The notes under the pieces were generated by a model that saw nothing but the letters and a program-made list of their open reading frames with translations, was not told where the DNA came from and searched no databases. From NCBI GenBank assembly GCA_000697665.1, contig KL197713.1, forward strand, positions 177,323 through 241,322: 64,000 bases of DNA, given 5' to 3'. The DNA comes from Jaapia argillacea MUCL 33604 (lineage: Eukaryota; Basidiomycota; Agaricomycetes; Jaapiales; Jaapiaceae). The position numbers and the translations under genes were made by a program. This document shows, in pieces, positions 23,467-50,612 of this stretch. Each line of letters starts with the position of its first letter. Positions within the stretch are counted from its first letter, which is position 1.

Positions 23467-23670
23467 GTGCGAATCTATGTCAGTTCGGAGAGGAAGGAAC
23501 TGAGTTTAGGTTAGAAAAACTTATCCCAATATGGAGTCCGGTGGCGGGTGATGGCCAACCGGTAACTGCACCCGGAACATCGTCAAGTGCCCACCAGTAT
23601 GCTCCATGGCTACTGATCCCTCCTTGTCTCTAGCTGTCTTTTTCTTACAGCATACCAAACCAATCTAGTT

Positions 23671-33013: not shown

Positions 33014-33496
33014 GTTATTAATTTCTGCGTGTATGTGATAGATGTGAATGACGATTCAAGTTTCGCTTCCGTTTTATTTGTGAGGTTCGCAATCCTGGAG
33101 ATTTCTCTGATTGATCTGTGAGATGAGCGAGGATCCAGATATCACTTGGTGTGCAACATGATAATATCTCGTTCATCCCTTCACTGACGGCTTCGCCAAT
33201 AGGTTCATGCCGTCTTTCTATTGCCTTGTTCGTATCGCGATCCTAAGTACACAATCGAACCCCCCACGAAAACGATGAAGCTCACTCAATCATAACGACA
33301 CTCCAAACGGAAAACCCGCGCATTTCATAAAAATCTTGATAAACAAATCCATGCGCCCACCTCCCTCATCACGCCAAGTATCATTTATCAAACGCGTCAA
33401 CTCCTTTTCTTTCATATTTGGTTTTTACGGTTCATGACCGTGAGACCCTCCTCCAACTCGTGATGAAAGGAGAGAAGGAAGAAGAGAGGAGATCCA

Positions 33497-33530
33497 TGTG
33501 GGCGCCAGGAGGGCATGGGACGTTGGTAGT
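33497..33530 (-). pseudogene. Metallothionein exon-2 remnant (Met-Pro-Asp type)
   Basis: The minus strand carries CATGCCCTCCTGG, the middle of exon 2 of the Met-Pro-Asp-type metallothionein. The 3' half is missing. The matching place in unit 2 (43243-43276) keeps the full 34-nt exon 2, so a deletion removed part of it here. Confidence 0.55.
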
Positions 33531-33647
33531 AAGTAGGGACTCTTTTTTCTGTGAGGACCAGGTGAAGGGCCGTGGTGAGTAAATCGCATCCATCCACAAC
33601 TAATCCCATCGAATGCAACTTCATGACCCCCCTCTGGCCTCGTTCTC

Positions 33648-33845
33648 GTGGACAATCCATCGTCCAACCTTCACAGAACCGATATCCACAAGAAAACCTT
33701 CGTCCAATCATACAATCGTCCAATTACAGACAATCGAGTTACAGAGTTGTTCATACTTTCTCCGCTACCCTCGCGATCCTACGTCCAGAAGGAGTACGCC
33801 ATTCGTAACATCTTGGTTGATATACCCATCGACTCTGGTTTTTAA
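33648..33845 (+). other. Open frame shared by both duplication units, function unknown
   Basis: The frame reads IHKKTFVQSYNRPITDNRVT then ELFILSPLPSRSYVQKEYAI, RNILVDIPIDSGF. The unit-2 counterpart (about 43390-43572) keeps the frame with scattered amino-acid changes. Both are followed by an AG and a second shared frame (DPSQDPTWYGTEEMNFKLNI in unit 1). It may be an exon pair of a small gene or a remnant of an older element. I recognise no domain. Confidence 0.3.
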
Positions 33846-34290
33846 TGTAGGTCTCGATCGTGGACCCCTCCCAAGATCCAACATGGTATGGAACCGAAGA
33901 GATGAACTTCAAGCTCAACATTACAAAGTTCGCTGGCTATCGTATACAGGCCGCTCAAATTACCCGCCTCCTTACCCGTCGTTCAAAACGACAAACTTGG
34001 AAGCATAGTGGGGTCATGTATATCCCTTCGTTGATGCCCTCTCGGTGACAACATCGCTTCCAGTCTCCCTGACTAGAGTATTGGGAGCCATTCCAGAGAG
34101 GCGACATCCCTACGCCTGAATCATGTACCATACACCTCAAATTCTTTTTTTACATTGGTTTTTACAGTCATGATCATGAGACCCTCCTCCACCGTTCAAT
34201 ATAACAACCTCGATGGAAACTCGTGACGAAAAGACAGGTGAGGAAGATGATCGATGCGGGTGAAAGAGTGGGTTGCTGTTATGGGCTTAT

Positions 34291-34418
34291 TTAACAGTCG
34301 CAATTACCAGGAGGGCAAGGGCACCTAGGGTGGGAATGAAGATGAGCGCATCACGGTATGATGCGGTGTGGACTTGCCTGATGCTGCAAGGGCAAGAAGC
34401 AGATCCGCAGTCGGGCAT
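34291..34418 (-). CDS. Metallothionein-like Cys-rich peptide, Met-Pro-Asp type (intact)
   Basis: A tiny two-exon gene: exon 1 34378-34418 (41 nt), intron 34325-34377 (53 nt), exon 2 34291-34324 (34 nt). The product has 24 residues and seven cysteines at positions 4, 9, 11, 15, 17, 22 and 24: MPDCGSASCPCSIR then CPCPPGNCDC. The spacing C-x4-C-x-C-x3-C-x-C-x4-C-x-C is identical to that of the Met-Ala-Gly genes nearby, as are intron phase (2) and the place of the intron, just before the fourth cysteine. The intron begins with GC (GCAAGT). A GT donor three bases further in would shift the frame and lose the last four cysteines. No aromatic residue is present, as expected for a metallothionein. 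A TATA-like AAGATAAAAAGG lies upstream at about 34,600, and the leader seems to hold its own intron (GTGAGT at about 34.52 kb). Metal binding is inferred from composition only. Confidence 0.78.
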
Positions 34419-35280
34419 GGTGGATTTACAAGTGGTTGTGTGAAGGGCTACATTAAATGGACGAGCACAGGTTAAGGGTAAGTCGTGGACAATGAGTTTC
34501 ACAACGGTCAGAACTCACTGAGAGAAGATTGATGTTTAGTTGGGGAGGGATGAGTCGACGTGTGTTTCCTGGGGAGAAGGAGATGAATGTGACAGACCCT
34601 CCTTTTTATCTTCATGCCACATGCTGTTGAGGTGCGTTTGTACCGGCGCTCACACTTCATACTAGGGCGATGCTATTCCATACGAGCATGGGTCAGGTGG
34701 GCGAAATTGGAAGTTTGTTAGAGAATCGCCGAGTGGTTAGCGTGCAGCGTGCAGGTGAGTTTATCGGACGTAGCTCCAACGTCGTAGTGTCCTGGCTGGA
34801 CGACGCCTGGAGGCCAAGCTGTCGCCCATGTTTGCGGGGAAAGTGAGGTGCCAGGGCCTAGATGCGTGCTTTGCACTGACGTTCCGTTGGAGCTCGTGAA
34901 GGGTAAACCCTGTGCGTCGATATACCCAGCATCACTCGCCGCGGAAAGAGGGAGACAATGGGATCAGCGATCTTGGGCTAGTATGTTCACGTGCGTTTAC
35001 TTCGCAACCCCAGAATGCCTTTCCCTGAATACTGTGCACGCACGTTTGCAGGTCGACCCAACCGAAATGAAGGAGTTCACCTCAACTACCAAACTCTCAT
35101 GGATCAATGCTGTGAAGATAACAGACGACTGAATTGATTTTCTCAGACTTTATCTCGTACAATTCATACAATCAAAACTCCGCACTCCTCCCCTTTACCA
35201 AATTCCGCCGTGCCCAGAATCAAAACAACACCTATTGGGGAGACCTTGTGACGAGCGGTCTCGAGATAGAGCGAGCGCGT

Positions 35281-35419
35281 TCAGCACTTGCACTCATTAG
35301 GCTTGCATTGGCAACTGATGATCGCAGTGGAACGATTAGTGGGGTTTGAGGGAACAGAGAGGAGCAGCCACTCACGAAGCACCGCAGTTGCATTGAGATT
35401 CTCCGCATGCGCCGGCCAT
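35281..35419 (-). CDS. Metallothionein-like Cys-rich peptide, Met-Ala-Gly type, copy 1
   Basis: Two exons: exon 1 35376-35419 (44 nt), intron 61 nt, exon 2 35281-35314 (34 nt), total 25 codons plus stop. The peptide reads MAGACGESQCNCGAS then CQCKPNECKC, with cysteines at 5, 10, 12, 16, 18, 23 and 25. CxC pairs and the absence of aromatic residues are metallothionein hallmarks; such peptides bind Cu(I), Zn or Cd and are usually metal-induced. This spacing differs from the Neurospora-type seven-Cys metallothionein. The ATG follows CACA, and the leader has the shared CGAAACCTCTC-type sequence on the minus strand. The same peptide is encoded by copies 2, 4 and 6. It is too short for standard ORF calling, which is probably why such genes are missed. 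Confidence 0.85.
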
Positions 35420-35565
35420 TGTGTATCAAAAAAAACCTAGTCATCGAGGTCAGTGGTCAGTGGTGAACGACTCGTAGAGCAGGTTCGACTCACTGGTTGG
35501 GAGAGAGGTTGAGAGTGAAGAGTAGGTCGTTGTGGTTGCCTGGCATTCACTCGCTCCCTCAACCA

Positions 35566-35763
35566 TATTTATACCCAGCAGGCCCCCCATCCTACACTGC
35601 TGGCCCGCTATCCTGGGCCACTGTAGCCGGAACAATAGAACTAGGGTCTTTACTCAGAGACTTGTGCAGCAATGGTTCTGCTCACTGCAAGCCGGACCTC
35701 CTTCACTGCATATCCGCGCCGATGCAGAGCTTGATACTGATTTCGTATGAGCGATTTGTGCTC
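35566..35763 (-). promoter_or_regulatory. Metallothionein promoter, copy 1: TATA box and upstream box
   Basis: The TATA box (TATAAATA on the minus strand) is at 35566-35573. The 15-bp box GAGCACAAATCGCTC (minus strand) is at 35749-35763, 175 bp further upstream. The box is an inverted repeat GAGC-N7-GCTC and recurs at every Met-Ala-Gly copy. Confidence 0.6.
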
Positions 35764-35819
35764 AGAGTCCAGTGGGAACTTCCGGGTCGTCTGATTGACA
35801 GCTGAGCTTCTTAGCTTCC

Positions 35820-37440
35820 TCAGTTCTGGAGGTGCCAGTTACCGGCCCCGAAGTTCCTGCTTTTGAGAATGGGAATATCTCGTCACCTGACCACAAAGTT
35901 TGGTGGGATTGTTAGTTCTCCATGTTTCGCCTCGGCTTCATGCGTCGGTGAGTGATCTTATGGTATCTTATCTGCTCCGGTACGCCATTATGAATCGTGT
36001 CTCTGCACCACGAAGCTTGATTTAATCAAGGAGCGACACTGTGGGTGGCTCGCTCCAGCACCTCGCGTGACTCATCGTCAAATGGCTTTCACCCCTGTGA
36101 TGCAGCACCTGTCCGATGGTGGCTCGATAGAGTATCACAAGCCGCGCGAACCTTATGGAATCCATCTACCATCCTTGTCATGGGCTCCCTAAACGTGGCT
36201 TGCGTTACGAGAGCGTTGCCCGTCTCTGACTTAGCCTTAACCTTTCTAAACAAACATTCTCTCGCAGTGATTGAAACAAGATACGACCGCCTCTCCACTG
36301 CAGCGAGGCTCACCGTCGTGTGACACCAAAGGTACGATTTTTAGGAGATGGAGGCACTGATATACCATTGTTATCCTCCTCTCTTGATGTGCCACCTCAA
36401 TAGGTTGTCACCACTCATCATATGTACGTTGACGGTTTACCGCTTATACCCTTTCTCCGTGTTAGTTGACAAGCGCATTCCTCTGATTCCGAGTTGACTA
36501 TGACAGGGGATAGATGTTCAGATATACTCCCAGTGGAAGCTTACGGCCGAAACTGATGTGATTCACGATAGTCGCCGTTTGAACAGCGGCCTCCGACAAC
36601 GCAAACCTTGGAAAGTCCGTCGTCTTTTCTGATGACTCTTTCCTTGTAAACCCCAGTCGCCTGGATCGTCCCATTTCATCTCACGGTGGCATTGCCATAG
36701 CGGCACCTGCCCTGGAGGCTACTCTCTTTGGGGACGCCAAAAGGATTCTAATGACCGCTACCCGTTCCCCCATTCAACCGCGCTCCGGCCACGGTTATAC
36801 ATGCCTGTCTGGTGTGGGGATACACAACGCATCTGGGACCTTCTTCCAACCTTTTCATCCCTCGCGGACCTCACCTGGACCAAGAGTGACATTCGTCAAA
36901 CATTACCTTCTATGATTCCGCATTCAATGTACGGGGGGCTTTGAGTGTCGATCATGCGCCCCGTTGAGAGTTTGGAGGAGAGGAGGACGTTGAGCTTCTG
37001 GGGAGCTCGTTAGGATGAGTTCACGGTAGGGTACAAAGAAGACTACCTAGACGGGAGGATACTTACTGGGGGTGAGGAATGATTTTCCTCCATCGTTTCT
37101 TAACGGGTTGCGGTGTAGAACTCGGGGGTTGGAGTCTTATAATTGTGTGCTCGAATTGAAGGCCTCCTTGTTCGTGCTTCTTCCAGACAGATTCCCGTAA
37201 ATTTTGCGCGCCTTGGTGGTTGCGGAAGTGGAACGCGTATCCTGGTTAGGTAGAATCCACCATTGGAATGAATATTCAATAGATAGATATCGTACCTCAA
37301 TACCCCTCAGCGACGCCCTTTCGAAGAGAAGTTAGTGATCAGGTGACATGATCTCGGGATATAATAGCACCACGACCAGAAAGCATTAGCAACGATTTGG
37401 GAGCTGACGAATCTAGGAAGCTAGAAGCTAAGAAGCCGTT
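35820..37440. other. Inter-gene DNA of unit 1, no supported gene
   Basis: This stretch matches 45,560-47,120 of unit 2. Short frames such as 36045-36323 are not kept open in the other unit and show no domain. It probably serves as spacer and shared promoter region between the divergent copies 1 and 2. Confidence 0.4.
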
Positions 37441-37467
37441 GAACAAACGACCAGTAACTTCCCACTG

Positions 37468-37662
37468 GAGCACAAATCGCTCATTTGAAATCGGCATCAT
37501 CCCTTGCATCGACGTTGATATGGAATCAAAAAGAAGACCGGGCAGTACCACGGGGGGTCAACTTCGCATATACTCCTGGTCAAGTAACCTACCTAGATTT
37601 TAATCGAAAAGACCAGAATAATGACCGGCATGCCGATGGGAAAGGGGGAACGGGTATAAATA
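37468..37662 (+). promoter_or_regulatory. Metallothionein promoter, copy 2: upstream box and TATA box
   Basis: The box GAGCACAAATCGCTC is at 37468-37482, preceded by CCCACTG. The TATA box TATAAATA is at 37655-37662, 172 bp downstream and about 140 bp before the ATG. The leader CACTCGAAACCTCTCTC is shared with the other copies. Confidence 0.62.
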
Positions 37663-37803
37663 TGGGCGAGGGTGAGCCAGTGAATCCCAGGCAAAGTACA
37701 AAGACCTACTCTTCACTCGAAACCTCTCTCAACCAGTGGGTCGAACCTTCTCTACGTAGAGCTCACCACTCACCTCGACGACTAGATTTTCTTTTGATAC
37801 ACA

Positions 37804-37938
37804 ATGGCCGGCGCATGTGGAGAATCTCAATGCAACTGTGGTGCTTCGTGAGTGACGGCTACTACTGTTTCACTCAGACTCCATCTCACCATCTATTCTG
37901 ATAGTTGCCAATGCAAGCCTAACGAGTGCAAGTGCTGA
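37804..37938 (+). CDS. Metallothionein-like Cys-rich peptide, Met-Ala-Gly type, copy 2
   Basis: Exon 1 37804-37847, intron 57 nt with GTGAGT and ATAG ends, exon 2 37905-37938. The 25-residue product is identical to that of copy 1, with all seven cysteines. It is divergent from copy 1 and separated by 2.4 kb. Its counterpart in unit 2 is copy 5 (47487), which differs at three residues (Ser8Pro, Ala14Thr, Asn21Ser), so this pair has diverged while copies 1, 2, 4 and 6 still agree. Confidence 0.85.
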
Positions 37939-38465
37939 ACGCGCTGTGCATACATGACGATGGTTCATCAATAGGTGTTGTTTCGGAGACTGGTGGGATT
38001 TGGTCATGGAGGTAAGGGGGCAGCGATGGTTGATTGTATGAATTTTGAGATAAATTCTGAGAAAATCAGTCATTTGCGATCGTCACAATCTTGGCGATAG
38101 AAAGTCTGGTGTACCCTACACAGAACATCTACGGGCAAACCGACTGAAGTTGTGAGCTTTACTTGATCCTTGAGATTTTGAGAATCATGAGCTCCAATAG
38201 CCTGAGGTTAGGCGGGTCGTCGGGGTGGGTGGGAAAGGGTTAGGGTTCGATGGCGCTGATTGGGTAGGGAAGAGTGTCGTAGTCAAATAGATAAGATACC
38301 GCGGACTCGCCACACTCGAAACTGCGATCTTTGTGATCTGCTGACGAGATCTTCATAAAAAGCACCATCGGGGCCAGAAAGTAATAATGGCATCTTCAGA
38401 GCTGACGAAGCTAGGAAGCCAAGAAGCCAAGAAGCTGTCGAATAGATGACAATAGGTCCCCACTG
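37939..38465. other. Downstream flank of copy 2, no gene
   Basis: The first ~170 bp, starting with a GGTGTTGTTT motif and a TTGATTGTATGAATTTTGAGAT tract found after other copies in part, look like a conserved 3' flank. The rest resembles 47,850-48,120 in unit 2. No coding signal was seen. Confidence 0.4.
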
Positions 38466-38790
38466 GAGCACAAATCGCTCAATGGCACTGGGTATGAGAT
38501 CGGCACCACCCGGGCATTGCCGCTGATGTGCTATGGAGGAGGGCTGGCTTGCAGAGACTTCGACACTGCATAGGCGTCTATATGAAGAATCTAGCTTAAA
38601 TTTGGTTACGGCGGCTAGAATAGCGAGCAGGACAGGATTCGGAGAGGGCTGCTGGTTCCAACATGGGCGGGAGAGGGCTCATAAACCCCAGGCAAATCGT
38701 AGAGTTCTTCTCACTCCAAACCTCTCTCAAAATCCTCACCAGTGAGGCGAGCCGTCTCTATAGCTTGTTCATCACTCACCTCACATTATG
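38466..38790 (+). pseudogene. Metallothionein locus with promoter box kept but coding exons deleted
   Basis: The upstream box is intact (GAGCACAAATCGCTC at 38466-38480) and the transcribed leader is recognisable (CTCACTCCAAACCTCTC near 38.72 kb, CATCACTCACCTC near 38.78 kb). The TATA sequence present at 48252 in unit 2 is changed to TTCCAACA here. Directly after the leader the sequence jumps to DNA that in unit 2 lies at about 48,930, so about 530 bp containing both coding exons is missing. The intact counterpart is copy 6 at 48407. Confidence 0.65.
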
Positions 38791-39750
38791 GCACAAGAAT
38801 TTACCCCAAATGAGCTTCTTGCCCACGCTAAAACCCCACAACAAACGTGGCGCTCACATCCCTCACAATCGTTGCCCGTCACTTGCCTTTCCCCCCTGGG
38901 ATGAACTAATCAGGAAAATGTACCACACAGGTATAAGTCTGATAAACTCACCGCACCCCGATCATCCCACACAGTCTTGCGGTCGCGCGACCAACTCGAA
39001 AGGAGAGCACACTATCCACTCGGTCCGAGCGTAAATTCGGAATTCGCACAGCTGACTTGTAACGCCCAATCGATTCTGAGGGTCAGCATGTAACGCCCTC
39101 TCAGACATGTATCTCCATCTCCCAATCCATTTCACCCAAACTTGGTTTCTCCCGAGGAACGACCACCAACTGGCCCCTGCCACGATTCGATATCCACGAA
39201 AAACCGAGGTTTACTTCAAGGGTAGAGCAAGGGCATACCTTGGATGGGAAATTCTCGTGCAGTTGTTTAATCAGTGGGTTTACGAGCATCCTGATCTTCA
39301 TGAGGTTGCGAGCTGCATGGGAGTGGGTTAGCGTTGGAAGGCGCTGATTGGACGGGGAGGAAATCCTAGCGCAGCGTGGAGGAGATAAGACACCATGATA
39401 CCACTCACCAACACATGAACTGCCGAATGAGAAAATTTGTAATCAGATGATGAGACCTTGAAAGAAATAGTATCGGGATCAGAAAGCACTGGTCACATCG
39501 AGAGGAACAACAAAGCTAGGAAGCCGAGTCCCGAGAAGGTGTCGATCAGACTACCTCTCAAAGTCTCACTGGGGCACAAATCGCTCAAACGAAATGGGCA
39601 TATCCCCTGTATTGCCGCCGATATGCTTTCAGGAAGGAGGCCGAGATGTCAGAGAAAGGGCGTCCTGACTAGAAGGAACTAGTAGTATTCGGAGGGCTGA
39701 TGGAGCTACGAAGCTTGGAAGCTCAGAAGCTGTCGAACAGGCGACCACTA
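38790..39750. other. Inter-gene DNA of unit 1 with an extra variant box
   Basis: No supported gene. The stretch matches 48,930-49,600. A second, slightly changed copy of the promoter box (GGGCACAAATCGCTC, 39572-39586) lies about 190 bp before the one used by copy 3 and has no counterpart in unit 2, so part of a promoter has been duplicated. Confidence 0.45.
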
Positions 39751-39761
39751 AGTTCCCACTG

Positions 39762-39957
39762 GAGCACAAATTGCTCATACGAAATGGGTATTATCAGCGG
39801 CGATGTTGCCGCGATACAGTACGGAAGTAGGCCAGGTGGTTGCGAGTGGAGCCAACGTGCACACGTCACCTAGTAAAGACCCCAACTCGGTTTTGGTTAT
39901 GGAGGCCCAGAATACCGAGCAGTACTGCGGGGGAGGGGGGCCTGCTGGGTATAAATA
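39762..39957 (+). promoter_or_regulatory. Metallothionein promoter, copy 3: upstream box and TATA box
   Basis: The box variant GAGCACAAATTGCTC (39762-39776) retains both GAGC and GCTC arms. TATAAATA is at 39950-39957, 173 bp downstream and about 140 bp before the ATG. Confidence 0.6.
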
Positions 39958-40099
39958 AGGGTGGGGGTGAACCAGTAAATCCCAGACAAAGCAAAAGACC
40001 CACTCTTCACTCGAAACCTCTCTCACAACCAGTGAGTCCAGTCTTCTCGACGGGTTGTTCGTCACTGACCTCGACGACCAGATTTTCTTTCGATACACA

Positions 40100-40234
40100 A
40101 TGGCCGGCACCTGTGGAGAACCCCAATGCAACTGCGGTACTGCGTGAGTGGTCGTTACTATTGGTTCACTCAGACTCCATCTCACCATCCATTCTGATAG
40201 TTGCCAATGCAAGCCTAATGAATGCAAGTGCTGA
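40100..40234 (+). CDS. Metallothionein-like Cys-rich peptide, Met-Ala-Gly type, copy 3
   Basis: Exon 1 40100-40143, intron 57 nt, exon 2 40201-40234. The product is 25 residues, MAGTCGEPQCNCGTA then CQCKPNECKC, with all seven cysteines and changes only between them (Ala4Thr, Ser8Pro, Ala14Thr, Ser15Ala against copy 1). That substitutions avoid the cysteines suggests selection on the metal-binding frame. It pairs with copy 7 in unit 2. Confidence 0.84.
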
Positions 40235-40735
40235 ACGCACTCGCCACGTCTCGAGACCGCTTGTCACCAGGTCTCATCAATAGGTGTTGTTTAGTTGTTG
40301 GCATGGCGGAATTTGGTAACGGGGCGGAATACGGCATTTGATTGTAGGAATTGTATGAGATAAATCCTGAGAAAATCCAATCAGTCGTCTGTTATCTTTA
40401 CAGCATCGATGTGGCGTACCACGTTGTAGGTGGCCCTTCATCTTGATCTTATGGCTAGTCACTTCAACTTGCACACTTATGCAGGCGTTGATCAGCGGAA
40501 GAATGTTTCAGCTGAAGTAAATATCTCCCCTGTTACGATGGGTACTGGCGCCTCGCTTCCCCCCAGACGGTTGGTAATGATTGTGATGATGTTTACTAGT
40601 AGCCTTGCCCTCCCAAAGATCGCTGAACCGATTTGGTCGGAGTGCAAGTTTGACATTCATTCATACACCTTAACCGTCTTGGTCAGCATCTTGTCGAGCA
40701 GGAGAAAGTTTATATGCTGGAGGACTGTGGAATAG
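40235..40735. other. Downstream flank of copy 3 and right end of unit 1
   Basis: Matches 50,087-50,612. An open frame of about 100 codons at 40430-40735 is not preserved in unit 2. No gene supported. Confidence 0.4.
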
Positions 40736-41185
40736 TCTGGAACAGTGTGAAATGTGCGTGACGCGCAGCGGGGCGTATGTTGCGCAGTATGCAATGCAGT
40801 AGATCAGTTCAGTTCATATGTCCACTCTGCTTCATCCATTGAACCTGCTCTCGTGCAACTGAGAAATCCTTCAACATGTAATCATCCAACTGGAGGTGGA
40901 AGATAAGTTTCGAGGAAGTGCAAAGAGTCGGTGCGCGGCAGGTTCGTAGACGGGAGAAGAGCTAAAACGAAGAGGGACGTCAGCGTATGGGTCTGTTAAA
41001 ATGTCAAACCGAGGCAAAAAAGGGGGGATAAGAGAAGGAGTTATTTACAATAGAAGGCAGCAGCCAATTAGAGAAAGTAACAGTATGAGGGTGGCATGGA
41101 GGGCTCATTGAGCGTAGTAGGAGATGGAGACCGAAAGGAGAGCATGGAATTGGGAGGCGGAGAAGCGAGACGAAGCAGAACTTAG
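40736..41185. other. Unique spacer between the duplication units
   Basis: Sequence between the end of unit 1 and the retroelement remnant, with no match in the rest of the window that I could see and no coding signal. Confidence 0.35.
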
Positions 41186-41436
41186 CTAATGAAAATCAGC
41201 TTCTGGTGGAGGGGAGGCTTGATATAAGGAGAACCTCTTTGTTTCATGAATAAAAGTGAGAAAACGGTGGATGCCGCGTTCCGTGGAGAGGAGTAATGAG
41301 AGAGAGTTGGCACGTGCATGGTGGCCAAGTGAAGTTTTGAGTTTGACTCCAGACTCGGAAACGTTTGCAGTGGAAAACGAATTGCGGGATGTCTTCAGAG
41401 ACATCACAGGATGGGCAGAGATCACTGACCGGAGCT
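41186..41436 (-). mobile_element. Remnant of a non-LTR retrotransposon (LINE-like) 3' coding end
   Basis: On the minus strand a Cys/His knuckle (LCPSCDVSEDIPQFVFHCKRF, spacing C-x2-C-x11-H-x-C approximately) is followed by a block ending STERGIHRFLTFIHETKRF in a neighbouring frame. This pairing of a C-terminal zinc knuckle with a short helical tail ending in T-x-RF is typical of the end of fungal LINE ORF2 proteins. Only about 250 bp survive. It abuts the left edge of unit 2. Confidence 0.45.
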
Positions 41437-42633
41437 GATCTCACTACAAAGCTATTACATTCCAACCCCGAGTTTTACACAATCTAGAACTGTCGACGCA
41501 ACATCCTCATCAACGGCATCTTTCCCTCCAGGTACTCCCCTCCCTCCCCTTTCACCGTCCCTCCCATCCCCACTAACTCCCACCCAGCTCCCCAGGAGAA
41601 ATCAACACCCTCCTCTCCTCCGACCTCTCCATAACAACCTCAGCGCTCAAAGCTCACCCCAAAGTATACTGGATATGGGATCACAGACGTTGGTGTTTAG
41701 AAAACGACCCTCCCAGTCACTCCTCTCCCAACGGTGAACAAACCCAAGGATGGAGGCAAAAGAACTGTGAGAGGGAGATGTATGTCGCCGAAAGGATGTT
41801 GGTCACCGAATCTCGCAATTGCTCGTCCCTCCCTTCACCCCCCTCTCCTCTCCCTTGAATGTTTTGTCACTATCAATTAGTCCACGCATAGAACTACCGC
41901 CGCTACATCCTCTCCCTCTTCCCAACCCCACCGTCACCACCCAAGAACTAACCTACACAACCCACAAAATCGAATCCAACCCTTCATATTTCTGCGCTTG
42001 GCATCAACGTTCCAAAATCCTCCCTCTAATCTGGGAAAAGGAAGGGAAAGCAAAGGAGTAGGAGATGAGGGAACTTGGTAAGTTTCTCTCTTGCCGCTTT
42101 TCTTTGAGGAGAAGCTGATTTTTGACGTGGGTGGTAGAATTTAATTTGGTCAGGAATGCTTTGTATGCCGACCCGAGTGATCAAAGCGCGTGGTTATACC
42201 ACCGATGGCTAATCGGCCCACGTACGTCCCCTCCCTTCTCCCTGCCAACCCTACTAACAAAGCCAAGCCAAGCCAGACCCAGACCCACACTCCTCACCCG
42301 CGAAATCACTTCAATCCAAGAACTCCTAGCCGAGTAACCCGATTCCAAATGTCCGTCCGTCCGTCCGTCCGTCCGTCCTCCCCCTTCCTCCCTTCAAACC
42401 GAAAGTAACGAGAGCGGATAGGGTGCATGGAATCTCTCGTCCAGTACACTCTCATCCCTCTCACCCCCTCCCAAATGGAAAGAAATGAGACGAAGAGGGA
42501 ATGTAGGAGGTTGTTGGACGCTTTGGGGGGTGTTGATTCTTGTAGGAAGAAGAGGTATCAGGAGATTTGTGAGTCGGTTTTTTTTTGGGAGCTGATGAGG
42601 TGTGTGTTGGTAGCTGAGAGGTTGGGAGTTTAG
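41437..42633 (+). pseudogene. Partial, decayed copy of BET4
   Basis: Sequence matching BET4 exons 3 to 9 and their introns, lacking the ATG exon and exon 2. In-frame stops replace conserved residues, for example TGG to TAG in the IWNYRRN motif (about 41,485) and in HAWNYRR (about 41,888), and further stops near 42,058 and 42,333. The 3' end still reads AERLGV before a TAG. Stops in conserved tryptophan codons show that the copy is not under selection as a prenyltransferase subunit. Confidence 0.88.
42350..42378. repeat. GTCC tetranucleotide microsatellite
   Basis: About seven tandem GTCC units within the BET4 pseudogene intron. The intact BET4 intron has a single unit at the matching place, so the repeat expanded after duplication. 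Confidence 0.8.
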
Positions 42634-43242
42634 CTTCTTTGGCTTTGCGTGTATGTGATAGACGACGAGGGTGAACGACAATTCAAGTTCCGTTCCGTTT
42701 TATTTGTGAGATTTGGAATCCTGGAGAGTTCTCTGATTGACCTGTGAGATGAGCGAGCATCCAAATATCACCGATGGTAGTGGTGAAGGGTGCAGGTGGT
42801 GTGTGACATGGCAATCTCTCGTTCATCCCTTGAGTCACTAACGACATCGCCGTTAGGTTCATACCTTCTCTCTCTGGCCTTGTTCGTATCGGGATCCTAC
42901 ATCCAACCCCTCATACTTTTCCGAAAACGATATCTACAAAGTGAAGCTCCCTCAATTATAAAGTCGTTTACACAGTCGTTCACGCCGTCCCCACCATCCT
43001 CGTTCGTGGCAACGACGTTACAAACGGAAAAGGCACACATTTCATCAAACCTTGATTAACAATATCCATGCACCCACCTCCCTCATCACGCGAAATATCA
43101 TTTATTAGACGCGTCAACTCCTTTTCTTTCATATTGGGTTTTACAGGTCATGACCGAGACCGTGATGAAGAGGGAGAGGTAAGAAGAGAGGAGATCCATT
43201 TGGGCGGTGGTTGTCCTCGAAATAGAGGTTGATGTGATGAAT
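42634..43242. other. BET4 pseudogene 3' flank, no gene
   Basis: Matches 33,014-33,490 of unit 1. No coding signal. Confidence 0.4.
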
Positions 43243-43276
43243 TCAACTGTCGCAATTACCAGGAGGGCATGTGCAG
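43243..43276 (-). pseudogene. Metallothionein exon-2 remnant (Met-Pro-Asp type)
   Basis: A complete 34-nt exon 2 after a CCGTAG acceptor on the minus strand, reading CTCPPGNCDS. The last cysteine has become serine. No matching exon 1 was found upstream on that strand, so the locus is incomplete. Confidence 0.6.
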
Positions 43277-43389
43277 CTACGGTTGGTAGTAAGTAGGACT
43301 CCTTTTTCTGTGGGAGGGTGGTGGGCAAACCTCATTCATCCACAAATGGTCCCATCGAATGCAAGTTCACAGCGCTCCTCTAGCCTCGC

Positions 43390-43572
43390 TCTCGTACACA
43401 ACCCATCATCCAACCCTCACAAAACCAATATCCACAAGAAAACCTTCGCCCAATCATACAATCGTCAAATTACAGGCAATCGAATTCTAGAGTCGTTCAT
43501 ACTTTCTCCGCTACCCTCGCGATCCTACACCCGGAATGAGTACGCCCTTCGTAACATCTTGGCTGATATACC
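43390..43572 (+). other. Unit-2 counterpart of the shared open frame at 33648
   Basis: Reads IHKKTFAQSYNRQITGNRIL, ESFILSPLPSRSYTRNEYAL, RNILADIPIDSGF. The frame is held open over about 60 codons despite base changes against unit 1. Product unknown. Confidence 0.3.
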
Positions 43573-44062
43573 CATCGACTCTGGTTTTTATAATAGGTCT
43601 CGATCGTGGACCCGCCCCAAGATCCAATATGGTATAGAACAGAAGAGACGACCTTCAAGCTCAACATTGCAAAGTTCGCCCGCTGTCGTATACAGGCCGC
43701 TCAAATTACCGACCTCCTTACCCGTCGTTCAAAACGGGGAACTTTGAAGCATAGTAGCTCATATACATATATCCCTCGTCAATGCCCTCTGATAACATCG
43801 CTTCCAGTCTCCCTGGCTTGAGCGTTGGAAACCGTTCAAGAGAGGCGACTCCCCTACGCCTCAATCTCCAGCCCTCATCACGCAAAATAGCATGTACTAT
43901 GCGCCTCAACTCCTTTTTTTACATTGGTTTTTTCAGTCATGGCATAATCGTGAGACCCTCCTCCAATGTTCAAAACAACAACCTCAATGGAAACTCATAA
44001 CGAAAAGACAAAAGAGAGTAGATCGAGGTGCGTGAGAGAGTAGATTGATGTGATAGGCTTAT

Positions 44063-44195
44063 TTAACAGTCGCAACTACCAGGAGGGCATGGGCACCTAC
44101 GTTGTAGGAAGGAATATGAGCGCGTAACGGTACGACGTGGCAGGCGTGGACTTGTTGATGCTGTAAGGACAGGAAGCCGATCCGCAGTCGGGCAT
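44063..44195 (-). CDS. Metallothionein-like peptide, Met-Pro-Asp type, diverged copy
   Basis: Exon 2 (44063-44096) reads CPCPPGSCDC and is intact after a CGTAG acceptor. Exon 1 reads MPDCGSASCPYSI..., so the third cysteine is now tyrosine. The GC donor used by the unit-1 copy is lost through a one-base deletion and change. A GT three bases further in (donor after 44152) would restore the frame and give a 25-residue peptide with six cysteines. It may therefore be still functional with a shifted donor, or it may be decaying; the sequence alone does not decide. Confidence 0.5.
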
Positions 44196-45067
44196 GTTGG
44201 ATTTACAAGGGGTTGTCTGAAGGCTAATTGAGCGAGACAGGCCAGAGTGAGTCGTCGACAATGGGTGTCGCAGTGGTCATAAGAGAAGATTAATGGTTAG
44301 TTGGGAGGAGGCATGAGTCGACGTTCCTGGAGAGAAATGCGAGACCCTCACCTTTTTTATCTTCGTTCCCCTCGTCGTTGAGGTGAGTTTGAACTTTGCA
44401 CCTGGCGGTTGAATTTCACGCTGAGGCGATGCCTATTCAGTTCGAGTAAGTACGCAGGCGGCAGGCAGGTGAACGAGATTCGGAATTTGTTGGGGATAAT
44501 AGAGTGGTTAGCGTGGGGCGTGAAGGTGAGTTTATCGGACGTAGCTGCGTCGTTGTGTGTCCTGGTTGGATGATGCTTGGAGGCCAAGTCGCCGCCCCAG
44601 CTTGCGGGGAAAGTGTGGGTCAGGTCCGGATACATGGTTTGTACTCGCGCCCAGCTGAAGCTCGTTAATGGTAAACCCTGCGCGCCAAGATACCCAGTGC
44701 CACTCGCGGAGTGGGGGAGAGGAAGGGAAGTGTATCAGCTGACTTGGACTAGTAGGTTCACGTGCGTTTACTTCGCACCCAGAGTATCTCTCCATGAATA
44801 TGGTGCTGGCAGTGTACACGCACCTTTGTAGCCTAAATCGACGCGACGGAAATGAAGGAGTTCACTGCAGCTACCAAACGTCGAGGTCACCTCGATGCTG
44901 TGGAGATAACGGACGACTGAATTGGTTTTCTCAAACTTTATCTCGTACAATTCATACAATCAAGCACTGCATTCCTCCCCTTTACCAAACCCCGCCATGC
45001 CCAGAACAATAACAACACCTATTGGGGAGACCTTGTGACGAATGGTCTCGAGATGGGGCGAGCGCAT
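44196..45067. other. Upstream region of the Met-Pro-Asp copy, no gene
   Basis: Matches 34,419-35,280. It contains a TATA-like AAGATAAAAAAGG (minus strand, about 44,355) and a likely leader intron. The GAGC-N7-GCTC box is not seen here, so this type seems to be controlled differently. Confidence 0.4.
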
Positions 45068-45203
45068 TCAGCACTTGCACTCGTTAGGCTTGCATTGGCA
45101 ACTAATGATCGTAATTGAACGATGAGTGGGGTTTGAGGGAACCGAGAGGGGCCACTCACGAAGCGCCGCAGTTGCATTGAGATTCTCCGCATGCGCCGGC
45201 CAT
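45068..45203 (-). CDS. Metallothionein-like Cys-rich peptide, Met-Ala-Gly type, copy 4
   Basis: Exon 1 45160-45203, intron 58 nt, exon 2 45068-45101. The peptide is identical to copy 1, its counterpart in unit 1, although the introns and flanks of the pair have diverged. Protein identity against diverged introns points to purifying selection or local gene conversion. Confidence 0.85.
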
Positions 45204-45345
45204 TGTGTATCAAAAAAAATCTGGTTGTAAAGGTGAGTGGTGAACGACCTGTAGAGCAGACTCGACGCACTGGTTGAGAGAGAGGTTGAGAGTGAAGAGT
45301 AGGTCTTTGTGGTTTGCCTGGGATTCACTCGCTCTCCCTCACCCA

Positions 45346-45540
45346 TATTTATACCCACTGGTCCCTCTGCTGCACTGCTGACCCGCTGTCCTGGGTCACT
45401 GTAACCAAAAAATTGAGCTAGGGTCTTTACTCAGAGACATGTGCAGCAACGGTTCTACTCGCTGCAAGCCGAACCTCTGTCACTGCATATCCGCACTGAT
45501 ACAGAGCTTGATACCAATTTCGTATGAGCGATTTGTGCTC
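45346..45540 (-). promoter_or_regulatory. Metallothionein promoter, copy 4: TATA box and upstream box
   Basis: TATAAATA (minus strand) at 45346-45353 and the box GAGCACAAATCGCTC (minus strand) at 45526-45540, 172 bp apart. Confidence 0.6.
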
Positions 45541-45559
45541 CAGTGGGAACTTCCGAGCC

Positions 45560-47120
45560 GTCTGATCGACATCTGAGCTTCCTCAATTCTCGAGGTCTTA
45601 CTGGTCCCGATGTTACTGCTTTCAAGAATGGAATATCTCGTCACCTGATCACCAAGTTTGCTGGATCTCCATGTTTCGTCTCGGCTTCATGAGTAATCTT
45701 ATGGTATCTTATCTGCTCCGCTACGCCATGATGAATCGTGTCTGTGCGATGATTCGTGTCTCTGTACCATGAATCTTGGTTTAATCAAGGCGAAATTGTG
45801 GGCGCCCACGCCCCATGGTCTCCCTTGGTCTCCCGCACGTCGCGTGACTCATCGTCAAATGGCTTTCACCCCTGTGATGCGGTACCTGTCTGATGATGGC
45901 TTGATACAGCATCCCAAGCCGCGCAGAGCTTTATGGAATCCATCTATCATCCTTGTCATGGGCTCCCCAAACGTGTTTGCGTTACGAAAGAGTCGCCTGT
46001 CCCTGTCTTAGCCTTATCGTTTCTAGATGATTGGAACGCGATGCGATCCTCTCTCCACTGCAGCGAGGGTCGTCGTCATGCGACTCCCCAAGGGACAATT
46101 TTTTTTGGAGATGGAGGCACCGATATACCATTGATATCCTCCTCTGTTGATGTGCCACCTCGATAGATTGTCACCACTCATCGTATGCACGTCGACGGTT
46201 TACCGCTTGTATCCGTTCTCCGTATCGCTTAGCAAGCGCCTTCTTCTGATTCTGAGTTGACTATGAGATCTTCAGATACTCTCAGTGGAACTCGTACGGC
46301 CGAAACTGAATTGTGATTTGCGATAGTCGCCGTTTGAACAGTGTCCCATTTTCATCTCACGGTGGCGTTTCCATATCGGCACCTGCCCTGGTTACTCTCT
46401 GGAGACGCCAAAAGGATTCTAAGGACCGTCCCCCCGTTCCCTCATACAACCGCACTCCCGCCACGGCTTTTTGGTTTGCGGATGCAACGCACCGGGGAGT
46501 TTCCTCCAACCCTTACATTCCTCACCGCGGACCTCACTTGGACCGAGAGTGACGTTCTCCAAACACCACCCTCTATGATTCCGCATTCAATAGATGGGGT
46601 GGGCTTTGAGGGCCGATAATGCCCCCCGTTGAGTGGTCGGAGGAAAGGAGGACGTTATACTTCGGGGAGGTAGGCAGGGTGGGTTAACGACAACGACAGG
46701 TACAAAGAGGGCTACCTAGAAGGGAAGATACTGTGGGTGACGGTCGATTTTTCTCCATAGTTTCTCAATGGGGTGCTGTGTAGAACTCGGGGTTCGAGTC
46801 ACCTAATTTTGTGGTCAGACTGAAGGCCTCCTTTCTCGTGCTTCCTCTACATAGATTCCAGTGGATTTTGTGCGACTCGGACTCGGACTGGGGTGGCTGC
46901 CGAAGTGGAACAAGTACCCTGGTTAGGTAGGACCTATCATTGGAATGGATATGGAATAGATAGATACCGTATTCCAATACCCCTCACCGACGCCCTTCGA
47001 AGAGAAGTTACTGATCAGACGACAAGATCTCGAAAAAATTTGCATCGCGACCGGAAAGCATTAGTCGTATTTGGAGAGCTGACAAAGCTAGGATGCTAGA
47101 AGCTAAGAAGCTATTGAACA
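45560..47120. other. Inter-gene DNA of unit 2, no supported gene
   Basis: Counterpart of 35,820-37,440. Frames such as 46313-46619 lack recognisable domains and are not conserved between the two units. Confidence 0.4.
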
Positions 47121-47142
47121 AACGACCAGTAAGTTTCCACTG

Positions 47143-47343
47143 GAGCACAAATCGCTCATTTGAAATCGGCATCTTCCCCTGCATCGACGCTGATATGCAA
47201 TCAGGAAGAAGACCGGGCTTACCATGGGTGTGGAGTCAACGTCGCACGTGTCTCTGAGCAAAGAACCTACCTCTATTTTGATGACAAAGGCCCAGAATAA
47301 CGAGTGGAATTGTGGGAGAGGGGGGGGGGGAATGGTATAAATA
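47143..47343 (+). promoter_or_regulatory. Metallothionein promoter, copy 5: upstream box and TATA box
   Basis: Box GAGCACAAATCGCTC at 47143-47157; TATAAATA at 47336-47343, 178 bp downstream. A run of about a dozen G lies just before the TATA box (about 47,319-47,330) and accounts for the slightly wider spacing. Confidence 0.6.
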
Positions 47344-47486
47344 GGGGTGAGGGAGAGCTAGTGAGTCCCAGGCAAACCACAAAGTCCTACTCTTCACTCG
47401 AAACCTCTCTCACAACCAGTGAGTCCAATCTTCTCCACAGGTCGTTCATCACTCACCTCAACGACCAGATTTTCTTTTGATACACA

Positions 47487-47622
47487 ATGGCTGGCGCCTG
47501 CGGAGAACCCCAATGCAACTGCGGCACTTCGTGAGTAGCTATTACTCGAGGTTCACTCAAACTCCATCTCACCATTCCATTTTGATAGCTGCCAATGCAA
47601 GCCTAGCGAATGCAAGTGCTGA
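47487..47622 (+). CDS. Metallothionein-like Cys-rich peptide, Met-Ala-Gly type, copy 5
   Basis: Exon 1 47487-47530, intron 58 nt, exon 2 47589-47622. The product is MAGACGEPQCNCGTS then CQCKPSECKC, 25 residues, seven cysteines. Exon 2 begins with C in place of T, which leaves serine 15 unchanged (TCC for TCT). Confidence 0.84.
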
Positions 47623-48122
47623 ACGTGCTCGCCCGCTCGGAATGATGTCTCGTCAATAGGTGTTGTTTGCTTCGGAGCCTTGCGGAATTTGGTTATGAAG
47701 GGTAAAGGGGTGGAAGTGTTTGATTGTACGAATTTTATGAGATAAAGTCTGAGAAAATCAATTCAATCGTCTGTTATCGTCGCAATCCTGGCGCTTGAAA
47801 GTTTGGCGTACCTAGACAGAACATGCACGGGAAACCCGACTTGATTTATGGGCTTTATTTGATGCTTGAGATTTCCTGAGCTTCAGAGAGTGGGTTAGGG
47901 TTTGAGGGCGCTGATTGGGTAAGGAAGAGAGTCCATGTAGTGGAGTGGATGGGACCCACCGTCACACTCGAAACTGCGATCTTTGTGGTCTGGTGACGAG
48001 ATCTCTCGAGATCTTCATTAAAAACACCATCGGGGCCAGAAAGCAATAATAGCATGTTGAGACTGACGAAGCCAAGAAGCTACGAAGTACTCGAACAGAC
48101 CACTGGCAGTAGGTTCCCACTG

Positions 48123-48259
48123 GAGCACAAATCGCTCACTGAGCACCAAATCGGCATCATCCCGGCAATGTCCCCAGTGACTCCAGCGCTGTAATTGAAT
48201 TAGTTGCGGTGGGGATAGCGAACAGGACTGGATTCGGAGAGGCGTTACTGATATAAATA
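48123..48259 (+). promoter_or_regulatory. Metallothionein promoter, copy 6: upstream box and TATA box
   Basis: Box GAGCACAAATCGCTC at 48123-48137; TATAAATA at 48252-48259. The spacing is only 114 bp, about 60 bp shorter than in the other copies. Confidence 0.6.
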
Positions 48260-48406
48260 TGGGCGGGAGAAGGCCCGTGAACCTCAGGGATACCGCAAAG
48301 TCCTACTCATCACTCGAAACCTCTCTCACAACCCTCACCGGTGAGTCGATCCTTCCCTCTGGGTTATTCGTCACTCACCTCGACGTCGAGATTTTTTTTA
48401 TAAACA

Positions 48407-48539
48407 ATGGCCGGCGCATGCGGAGAATCTCAATGCAACTGCGGTGCTTCGTGAGTCGCTGCTACCGATGATTCACTCAATCTGCTCACCGTGCCATTAT
48501 GATAGTTGCCAATGCAAGCCCAACGAGTGCAAGTGCTGA
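48407..48539 (+). CDS. Metallothionein-like Cys-rich peptide, Met-Ala-Gly type, copy 6
   Basis: Exon 1 48407-48450, intron 55 nt, exon 2 48506-48539. The peptide is identical to copies 1, 2 and 4. Its unit-1 counterpart has lost both exons by deletion (38466-38790). It lies 0.8 kb downstream of copy 5 in the same orientation. Confidence 0.85.
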
Positions 48540-49600
48540 ACGCGCTCGCCCGTATATCGGGACCGCTTGTTACAAGGTCTCACCATTAGGTGTTGTTAGG
48601 CTTCTAGGCGCCACGGGCGTTGGTAAAGGGGCGGAATGCGGCATTTGATTGTATGAATTGTATGAGGCAAAGTCTGAGAAAATCGGTTCGGAGTCGTCTG
48701 CTATCCTCGCACTGGCAAGAATTTCGGTAGTTGAACGACGGTGACCCTTCACCCTGCAGGTTCCCATCGTTTCGATCTGTCGCTGAACTTGAATGTGCGC
48801 GTACATTAGTCAGGGAAAGTCGCAAAAGAGCATGAACCTACGAGCCGTCTGGATGCGATGGCTTGTAAAGTCGGTGGATTCAATTGCCCTCCGCAATCAC
48901 ACGCCGAGTTAGGCTCCTCGGAGCATAAGAAATGAGTTTCTCGCCGCTCCTGCTAAAACCACACAAAACCGTGGAGCTCACGCGCTCCCCGCAATCGTTG
49001 GCCGTCCCTGGCCTTTCCCCATGGGGTGACCCATTCAAGGAAACGCACCACATAGCCTACACACAGCTGTAAATCTGATAAACTCGCCTGCACTCTCGAT
49101 CATCCCACACAGTCCCGGGTCCTGCGACCAAACCGAAAGAGATGGAGGATCCGGTTGGGACCGGTCAGATCAAAGGCCCCCTCGGTCCAATCCTTGTGCT
49201 TTTTCTGGATAGATTGATGTGAATTCGGTACGAGCTACGGACAGGAAAGGCGCACCCAGGATGGAACATTCTCGTGTAGTTTCCTGATCAGTGAATTATG
49301 AGCATCCTGAGCTTCATGAGATTGCGAGCTCATTCTACGCCGTGCTGTGATGCATGCTCGGAGTGGGTTAGGGTTGGAAGGCGCTGATTGGATGAGGAGA
49401 TCCGATCCCGGTGTGGTGGAGGAGATAAGATACCGTGATACCACTCGCCAACACATAAACCGCCGAGTCGGAAATATTGTCATCAGACGACGAGACCTCC
49501 AAAGAGTTAGCATCGGGATCAGAAAGCACTGGTCGTATCGAGACCTATCGAGACAGACAACGAAGCTTCGAAGCTCAGAAGCTGTCGAACAGGCGACCAG
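48540..49600. other. Inter-gene DNA between copies 6 and 7
   Basis: The first part (48,540-48,925) is absent from unit 1, within the deletion there. The rest matches 38,800-39,720. No gene supported. Confidence 0.4.
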
Positions 49601-49613
49601 TAAGTTCTCACTG

Positions 49614-49808
49614 GAGCACAAATTGCTCATACGAAATGGGCATTATCAGCGGCGATGTTGCTGCGATATGGTATGGAAGTAGACCAGGTGGTTGCGAGTG
49701 GAGTCAACGTGTATACGCCACCGAGTAAAGACCCTCATTCGGTTTTGGTTATGGTGGCCCAGAATACCAAGCAGTACTGCGGGGAGGGGGGCCTGCTGGG
49801 TATAAATA
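49614..49808 (+). promoter_or_regulatory. Metallothionein promoter, copy 7: upstream box and TATA box
   Basis: Box variant GAGCACAAATTGCTC at 49614-49628, the same variant as in copy 3; TATAAATA at 49801-49808, 172 bp downstream. Confidence 0.6.
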
Positions 49809-49950
49809 AGGGTGGGGGTGAACAAGTAAATCCCAGACAAAGCAAAACACCCACTCTTCACTCGAAACCTCTCTCACAACCAGTGAGCCCAGTCTTCTCG
49901 ACGGGTTGTTCGTCACTGACCTCGACGACCAGATTTTCTTTTGATACACA

Positions 49951-50086
49951 ATGGCCGGCACCTGTGGAGAACCCCAATGCAACTGCGGTACTGCGTGAGT
50001 GGTCGTTACTACTGGTTCACTCAGACTTCATCTCACCATTCCATTCTGGTAGTTGCGCATGCAAGCCTAATGAGTGCAAGTGCTGA
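49951..50086 (+). CDS. Metallothionein-like Cys-rich peptide, Met-Ala-Gly type, copy 7
   Basis: Exon 1 49951-49994, intron 58 nt, exon 2 50053-50086. The product is MAGTCGEPQCNCGTA then CACKPNECKC, with seven cysteines. It differs from copy 3 only by Gln17Ala, again between cysteines. It is the last copy of the array. Confidence 0.84.
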
Positions 50087-50612
50087 ACGCACTCGCCACG
50101 TCTCGAGACCGCTCGTCATCGGGTCTCATCAATAGGTGTTGTTTAGTTCTTGGCAGGGCGAAATACGGTAACGGGGCGGGATACGGCGTACGCGTTCGAT
50201 TGTAGGAATTGTATGACATAAATTCTGAGAAAATCTATTCGGTCTTTTGTTATCTTTACAGCGTCGATGCGGCGTACCGCGTCGTAGGTGGCCCTTCATC
50301 TTGATCTTGTGGCTGGTCGCTTCGACTTGTGTACTTATGCAGGCATTGATTAGCGGAAGAACGTTTCAGCTGAAGTATTCAAGTAAATATCTCCCTTGTT
50401 ACGATGAATGACACTGGGTACTGGCGCCTCGCTTCTCCCCCAGTCGATGACGTTGGTCATGGCTTTGCCCGTGAGGACGTTTAGCCTTGCCCTCCCGAAG
50501 ATCGCTAAACCGATTTGGTGGGAGTGCAAGTTTGACATTCGTACACCTTACCCATCTTGGTCAACTTCTTGTCGAGCAGGATAAAGTTTAGATGCCGGAG
50601 CACTGTGTGGTA

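What the first reader, a model, noticed from the sequence alone, without database searches (positions are those of the whole stretch)
33497..50086. An array of tiny two-exon metallothionein-like genes hidden from normal ORF calling
Seven intact genes of one type, one intact and one diverged gene of a second type, and three remnants lie within 17 kb. Each encodes only 24-25 residues with seven cysteines split by a ~55-nt intron, so each exon is 34-44 nt and no single frame exceeds 15 codons. Cysteine content, CxC pairs, lack of aromatic residues and strong copy-number growth fit metal-buffering peptides. The cysteine order differs from the Neurospora-type fungal metallothionein that I know, so the family may be undescribed.
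Basis: partly seen in the sequence, partly recalled or inferred. Interest (0 to 1): 0.93.

Follow-up and report, generated by a model that had tools for sequence, protein, structure and literature searches.

The report
Cluster of tiny fungal metallothionein genes
A stretch of what is probably a fungal chromosome carries eight intact, easily missed genes for very small cysteine-rich peptides that very likely bind metals; they fit an already described kind of mushroom metallothionein, present here as a many-copy cluster.

Summary
Between 33.5 and 50.1 kb lie seven intact genes of one type (25 aa, 7 Cys, two coding exons) and one intact gene of a second type (24 aa, 7 Cys, GC-AG intron), plus one diverged second-type copy and three remnants. 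Eight spliced seven-Cys motifs occur in the window, against 1 in 100 simulated windows. Pooled pN is 0.048 and pS 0.311, so the peptides look selected. All seven type-1 genes have a TATA box at about -150 and a 16-bp element at -284 to -344; its only other exact copy lies at a promoter remnant. All also have a predicted 5'UTR intron. The array grew by local copying and a ~9.7-kb tandem duplication; the second copy of the BET4-like neighbour has stops. The suggestion of an undescribed family is not supported: C-x4-CxC-x3-CxC-x4-CxC fits the published heptaCys hallmark of Agaricomycete metallothioneins (PMC12508003). Not in that paper's table are the minimal length and the copy number; a second paralogous type and the shared element add to this. 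Expression, metal and host could not be tested.

The parts
35281..35419 (-). type-1 metallothionein gene A1 (exons 35419-35376 and 35314-35281), MAGACGESQCNCGASCQCKPNECKC
37804..37938 (+). type-1 gene A2 (exons 37804-37847, 37905-37938), same peptide as A1
40100..40234 (+). type-1 gene A4 (exons 40100-40143, 40201-40234), MAGTCGEPQCNCGTACQCKPNECKC
45068..45203 (-). type-1 gene B1 (exons 45203-45160, 45101-45068), same peptide as A1
47487..47622 (+). type-1 gene B2 (exons 47487-47530, 47589-47622), MAGACGEPQCNCGTSCQCKPSECKC
48407..48539 (+). type-1 gene B3 (exons 48407-48450, 48506-48539), same peptide as A1
49951..50086 (+). type-1 gene B4 (exons 49951-49994, 50053-50086), MAGTCGEPQCNCGTACACKPNECKC
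34291..34418 (-). type-2 metallothionein gene, intact (exons 34418-34378, 34324-34291; GC-AG intron), MPDCGSASCPCSIRCPCPPGNCDC
44063..44195 (-). diverged type-2 copy (Cys to Tyr; homologous donor lost; 6 Cys)
33501..33520 (-). type-2 exon-2-like remnant
   Evidence: sequence; lies beside the stretch 33505-36586 that aligns with 43259-46341
43243..43279 (-). type-2 exon-2-like remnant (no matching exon 1 seen by eye)
   Evidence: sequence
38461..38790 (+). type-1 promoter remnant (upstream element present; no TATAAATA; coding part lost)
37468..37483 (+). upstream element GAGCACAAATCGCTCA of A2; the other seven exact copies of GAGCACAAAT[CT]GCTCA start at 38466, 39762, 47143, 48123, 49614 (+) and 45540, 35763 (-)
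37655..37662 (+). TATA box of A2; the others are at 39950, 47336, 48252, 49801 (+) and 45353, 35573 (-)
37736..37785 (+). predicted 5'UTR intron of A2 (50 nt); a counterpart is predicted in each of the 7 type-1 genes
31811..40729 (.). duplication unit A (extent of similarity to unit B, with gaps)
41436..50607 (.). duplication unit B (extent of similarity to unit A, with gaps)

Best explanation
This is a multigene locus of short heptaCys metallothioneins of the kind described in Agaricomycete fungi. Each type-1 gene has a TATA promoter, a shared upstream element, a predicted 5'UTR intron and two tiny coding exons. After splicing it gives a cytosolic 24-25-residue peptide that wraps soft metal ions (most likely Cu(I), also Cd(II)) with seven thiolates, and so buffers and detoxifies them. 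Raising gene copy number raises peptide dose. Shown here: sequence anatomy, low pN/pS, the duplication, and the fit to the published Cys spacing. Inferred: splicing, transcription, location, metal binding, metal identity and inducibility.
For: C-x4-CxC-x3-CxC-x4-CxC in all 8 intact genes (the 4 distinct type-1 peptides and the type-2 peptide were tested), which is the printed heptaCys motif. In Table 1 of PMC12508003 all 17 listed peptides are marked + for protecting yeast against Cd, and all 17 for Cu; one of the 17, AcMT1, departs from the motif by one residue. Pooled pN 0.048 against pS 0.311 over 21 pairs. Mean pairwise identity is 0.89 and 0.93 in exons 1 and 2, 0.74 in the intron, 0.79 in the 170 nt before ATG and 0.54-0.62 further up- and downstream. 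No stop or lost Cys in any of 7 type-1 copies, while copy B of the BET4-like neighbour has four stop codons where copy A reads through. Upstream element and TATA at 7 of 7 type-1 genes. Both types split the codon just before Cys4 in phase 2 and have a 34-nt exon 2.
Against: There are no transcript or protein data. Pfam gives no family for the three type-1 peptides scanned and only a meaningless E=1.1 match for type 2. PDB gives none for the one peptide searched. An exon-2 DNA pattern was not found in viral contigs or genome contigs, collections of viruses and prokaryotes. The peptides are shorter than the shortest tabulated relative (32 aa). Selection is clear only in pooled data and in A1/B1: for A4/B4, exon 2 (31/34) is no better than the intron (54/58), and for A2/B2, exon 1 (36/44) hardly so (45/58). 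The upstream element is not a proven metal element: its one-mismatch resemblance to the Cryptococcus Cuf1 site is of a kind no more frequent in the window than chance (68 matches, 69.4 expected).
Confidence: 0.85

Rival explanations
1. The genes are real metallothionein genes but of a separate lineage that reached the heptaCys spacing by convergence.
For: Similarity to Agaricomycete MTs is established here only through the printed Cys pattern; no homologue sequence could be aligned. Metallothioneins converge readily (general knowledge).
Against: All the Cys spacings agree. AcMT2 is also described as a three-exon gene with introns of about 50 bp, the same count and size as predicted here.
Confidence: 0.15
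2. The type-2 locus is not a spliced metallothionein but an intronless 43-aa ORF with a hydrophobic C-terminus.
For: The unspliced frame is open for 43 codons and ends in a hydrophobic stretch. The spliced model needs a GC-AG intron.
Against: The spliced product has the heptaCys spacing and shares intron position, phase and exon-2 length with type 1. In the sister copy the unspliced frame stops after 32 codons, while exon 2 is 32 of 34 identical and the intron 42 of 53. AG|GCAAGT is the usual GC-AG donor (recalled).
Confidence: 0.07
3. The array is a relic: promoters and exons persist by recent copying and gene conversion, not by function.
For: One type-2 copy and three further members are broken, so decay does happen here. 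Two of the three A/B gene pairs show little exon-intron contrast.
Against: Pooled synonymous positions have diverged far more than replacement positions. Copy B of the BET4-like neighbour has stops, but 7 of 7 type-1 frames have none.
Confidence: 0.06
4. The peptides are cysteine-rich secreted or disulfide peptides (defensin- or effector-like).
For: Small size, high Cys content, multi-copy cluster.
Against: The N-terminus before the first Cys is 3-4 residues, with no room for a signal peptide. An odd number of Cys, six of seven in CxC pairs, is typical of metal clusters and not of disulfide folds (general knowledge).
Confidence: 0.02

Closest known systems
Agaricomycete heptaCys metallothioneins (AcMT2, AsMT2, PiMT1, LbMT1, CcMT1/2, ShMT1/2 and others; PMC12508003)
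   Same: C-x4-CxC-x3-CxC-x4-CxC, short peptide; AcMT2 has three exons with ~50-bp introns
   Different: 24-25 aa here against 32-35 aa for the short members tabulated; eight intact genes in 17 kb against 1-3 peptides per species in the paper's Table 1
Tremella mesenterica modular metallothionein TmMT (PMC4755600)
   Same: The type-2 core CPC-x3-CPCPPGNCDC fits CxC-x3-CxCPPGxCxC
   Different: A single module, not repeated 7-Cys units in one 257-aa protein; lone Cys on the N-terminal side instead of the C-terminal AxCP
Neurospora/Agaricus bisporus-type metallothionein (family 8; PMC4755600)
   Same: Seven Cys, similar length (26 residues)
   Different: Spacing CxC-x5-CxC-x3-CxC-x2-C is met by 0 of the 6 sequences tested
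Saccharomyces CUP1 array (recalled; not compared in any call)
   Same: Metallothionein dose raised by tandem amplification
   Different: Here the copies are diverged, lie in both orientations and are spread over 17 kb

Membership tests
Agaricomycete heptaCys metallothioneins | C-terminal C-x4-C-x-C-x2,3-C-x-C-x4-C-x-C | tested here: met
   8 of 8 intact genes; the diverged type-2 copy fails; motif as printed in PMC12508003
Agaricomycete heptaCys metallothioneins | short members up to 35 aa, long members up to 59 aa | tested here: met
   24-25 aa, within 'up to 35 AA', but below the shortest tabulated peptide, 32 aa
Agaricomycete heptaCys metallothioneins | three or four exons with ~50-bp introns (AcMT genes) | tested here: inconclusive
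   three exons predicted for type 1, with introns of 55-61 nt and 50-57 nt; splicing not observed, and the intron positions of AcMT genes are not comparable from the text read
Agaricomycete heptaCys metallothioneins | sequence phylogeny with known members | not testable with these tools
   no fungal sequence collection was on hand; the paper's alignment is a figure
Metallothionein (functional definition) | binds metal through Cys thiolates / protects metal-sensitive yeast | not testable with these tools
   needs bench work
Neurospora-type (family 8) metallothionein | CxC-x5-CxC-x3-CxC-x2-C | tested here: not met
   0 of 6 sequences: four distinct type-1 peptides, intact type 2 and the diverged type-2 copy
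Tremella TmMT 7-Cys unit | CxCx3CSCPPGxCxCAxC | tested here: not met
   0 of 6 meet the full unit; the intact type-2 peptide alone (1 of 6) meets the core CxCx3CxCPPGxCxC

The most novel reading that the evidence does not exclude
The locus preserves the minimal, single-module form of the basidiomycete metallothionein, with an Agaricomycete-like type (type 1) and a Tremella-module-like type (type 2) side by side as paralogues that share one intron. It would thus show that the two published metallothionein styles come from one ancestral two-coding-exon gene. Type 1 would be driven as a co-regulated battery by a novel upstream dyad element, GAGC-N7-GCTC.
Probability: 0.2. Interest if true: 0.5.

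Novelty: new member of a known kind. Interest (0 to 1): 0.36.

Why it matters
If the genes are expressed, a battery of eight metallothionein genes would be invisible to ORF-based annotation: the unspliced frame of each type-1 gene ends after 15 codons (7 of 7), since the donor GTGAGT brings a TGA into frame. It would be a clean natural case of dosage growth by segmental duplication in which the metal genes stay intact while a co-duplicated neighbour copy decays. It also offers a candidate shared regulatory element to test.

Tried and rejected
Undescribed family: rejected on the printed heptaCys motif. Neurospora-type membership: rejected on spacing. Cuf1-type copper element: AAATCGCTCA and AAATTGCTCA each match 9 of 10 positions of the C. 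neoformans CuRE printed in PMC7961099, but one-mismatch sites are at chance level across the window (68 against 69.4 expected), 9 of the 68 being these elements. Of the two exact CuRE matches, one lies 3' of B3 (48637, -) and one far away (58262). So this stays a lead only. PMC13343922 (passages only) was looked at for a Cuf1 consensus; none of the sequence words I searched for was in it. TTTGCTC and an ACE1-like pattern (both recalled) are not concentrated at the genes: 1 of 9 and 5 of 22 sites in 33-51 kb. Searching papers for six peptide words gave 0 papers. Rfam and ARAGORN gave nothing in the window. The exon-2 DNA pattern gave nothing in viral or prokaryote contigs, as expected for a fungus. 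No whole genome is held. PDB searches with the kinase and BET4-like ORFs did not identify the organism.
Full report
1. What is there. A scan for two-exon Cys-rich peptides with GT-AG introns over both strands found seven type-1 genes (it also printed six other, overlapping or partial models). Coordinates, peptides and introns are: exon 1 is 44 nt, the intron 55-61 nt (each starting GTGAGT and ending AG) and exon 2 is 34 nt. Four distinct peptides occur among the seven: MAGACGESQCNCGASCQCKPNECKC (A1, A2, B1, B3), MAGTCGEPQCNCGTACQCKPNECKC (A4), MAGACGEPQCNCGTSCQCKPSECKC (B2) and MAGTCGEPQCNCGTACACKPNECKC (B4). The intact type-2 gene, MPDCGSASCPCSIRCPCPPGNCDC, needs a GC-AG intron, so the GT-only scan missed it; the motif scan has it. 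The second type-2 copy has Tyr for one Cys and has lost the homologous donor; another GT nearby would still give an in-frame product with six Cys.

2. More than chance. The window holds 8 pairs of half-motifs (C-x4-CxC then CxC-x4-CxC, with GT/GC and AG between, within 200 nt). In 100 first-order Markov simulations of the window, both strands, there was 1 in all. Exon-2-type half-motifs: 9 in the window (5 on +, 4 on -) against 2 in the 100 simulations. Exon-1-type half-motifs: 19 (12 and 7) against 216 in the 100 simulations, 2.2 each. Of the 19, 17 are coding in the eight intact genes and the diverged type-2 copy, one (48492) starts in the intron of B3, and one (45463) lies outside any of these genes.

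3. Selection. Over the 21 pairs of type-1 coding sequences pooled pN is 0.048 and pS 0.311 (Nei-Gojobori counts). The pairs are not independent and each gene has only about 14 synonymous sites. Mean pairwise identity is 0.89 in exon 1, 0.93 in exon 2, 0.74 in the intron, 0.79 in the 170 nt before ATG, 0.54-0.56 further upstream and 0.62 downstream. By A/B pair: A1/B1 has exon 1 43/44, intron 51/61, exon 2 33/34. A2/B2 has 36/44, 45/58, 31/34. A4/B4 has 44/44, 54/58, 31/34. So the contrast is clear in A1/B1 and in the pooled data, weak in A2/B2 and mixed in A4/B4. The type-2 pair gives 36/41, 42/53 and 32/34, and 137/200 in the 200 nt upstream.

4. Gene anatomy beyond the coding exons. TATAAATA occurs 8 times in the window on the two strands, 7 of them 149-155 nt before the seven type-1 ATGs. 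The 16-mer GAGCACAAAT[CT]GCTCA occurs exactly 8 times in 64 kb: once before each type-1 gene at -336 to -344 (B3: -284) and once at the promoter remnant at 38466. The 21-mer CACTGGAGCACAAATYGCTCA, with up to 3 mismatches, occurs 8 times against 0 in 100 shuffles. One of these (39567) has a mismatch inside the 16-mer, and the copy at 35763 is missed because of a 6-nt insertion (alignment). The element has a GAGC...GCTC dyad. The type-2 genes lack the 16-mer; both have a GATAAAAA stretch about 190 nt upstream of the intact gene's ATG position (alignment). A 5'UTR intron is predicted in all seven type-1 genes: 50 nt in six and 57 nt in A1, donors GTGAGT (4), GTGGGT, GTGCGT and GTGAGC, ending in AG, with GAG in place of CAG or TAG in B3. 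The search expression was written after I had seen the alignment, so this is a prediction, not a test.

5. How the array grew. BLAST of the window against itself shows a direct duplication of 31.8-40.7 kb onto 41.4-50.6 kb, 76-88% identical by piece. I infer that before that event the unit already had four type-1 genes (one inverted) and two type-2 loci. Unit A then lost one type-1 gene: similarity to 48.2-48.4 kb ends at 38782 and resumes at 38808 with 48.93 kb. Unit B's type-2 gene decayed. The duplicated neighbour is BET4-like, a Rab geranylgeranyltransferase alpha subunit (Pfam PF01239, E=9e-12; PDB match 6.5e-8). In unit B it has four stop codons where copy A reads through. Whether copy A is a complete gene was not tested.

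6. What it is. The spacing was compared with printed patterns. PMC12508003 (I saw passages, section 19 and part 1 of section 22) gives C-x4-C-x-C-x2,3-C-x-C-x4-C-x-C as the hallmark of AcMT orthologues, short (up to 35 aa) and long (up to 59 aa). It tabulates 17 peptides of 32-59 aa, all marked + for protecting yeast against Cd and against Cu; AcMT1 departs from the motif by one extra residue. All eight intact genes here fit. PMC4755600 (passages and section 17 seen) prints the Neurospora/Agaricus pattern, which none of 6 tested sequences meets, and the Tremella unit CXCX3CSCPPGXCXCAXCP, whose core the type-2 peptide meets without the last Cys. So the peptides are best filed as metallothioneins of the heptaCys kind, shorter than any tabulated there. 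Types 1 and 2 interrupt the codon before Cys4 in phase 2 and have equal exon-2 length, which argues that they are paralogues.

7. How it works (inferred). The spliced peptide is cytosolic (3-4 residues before the first Cys leave no room for a signal peptide) and chelates Cu(I)/Cd(II) with seven thiolates; seven-Cys boxes of Cryptococcus are described as giving Cu5 clusters (PMC4755600). Dose is set by copy number and, perhaps, by induction. The metal, the regulator and the inducer are unknown. The Cuf1-site resemblance (9 of 10 positions; consensus from PMC7961099, passages seen) is of a kind at chance frequency over the window.

8. Limits. The host is not identified; a fungus, probably a basidiomycete, is my inference from the short introns, gene content and motif. 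No fungal sequence collection was on hand. The ten literature searches cover only open-licence PMC papers, and some of the listings were capped. I saw no report of a comparable cluster of short basidiomycete metallothionein genes in those listings, which is weak evidence of absence.

Noticed in passing
41436-42771: Second copy of the BET4-like (Rab geranylgeranyltransferase alpha) gene, with four stops relative to the copy at 31811-33145 and a short TCCG repeat near 42350-42377; looks like a pseudogene.
   Followed up: partly
34286-34418 (-): The unspliced type-2 frame is open for 43 codons and ends in a hydrophobic stretch; intron retention would give a quite different peptide.
   Followed up: partly
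28066-28635 (-) and 29673-30866 (-): Pieces of a Syf1-type splicing factor (HAT repeats, Pfam).
   Followed up: no
19645-20976 (+): Protein kinase; best PDB matches are cAMP-dependent protein kinase catalytic subunits.
   Followed up: partly
23014-23505 (-), 12091-12699 (-), 60358-60891 (-), 6307-7068 (-): Cytochrome c heme lyase, LigB-type dioxygenase, hydroxyacylglutathione hydrolase C-terminus and Mon2/Sec7-like HUS domain; ordinary neighbours.
   Followed up: no
50608-53370: About 2.8 kb past the edge of the duplication with no similarity to the unit; stop-to-stop frames up to 166 aa are listed there, none examined.
   Followed up: no
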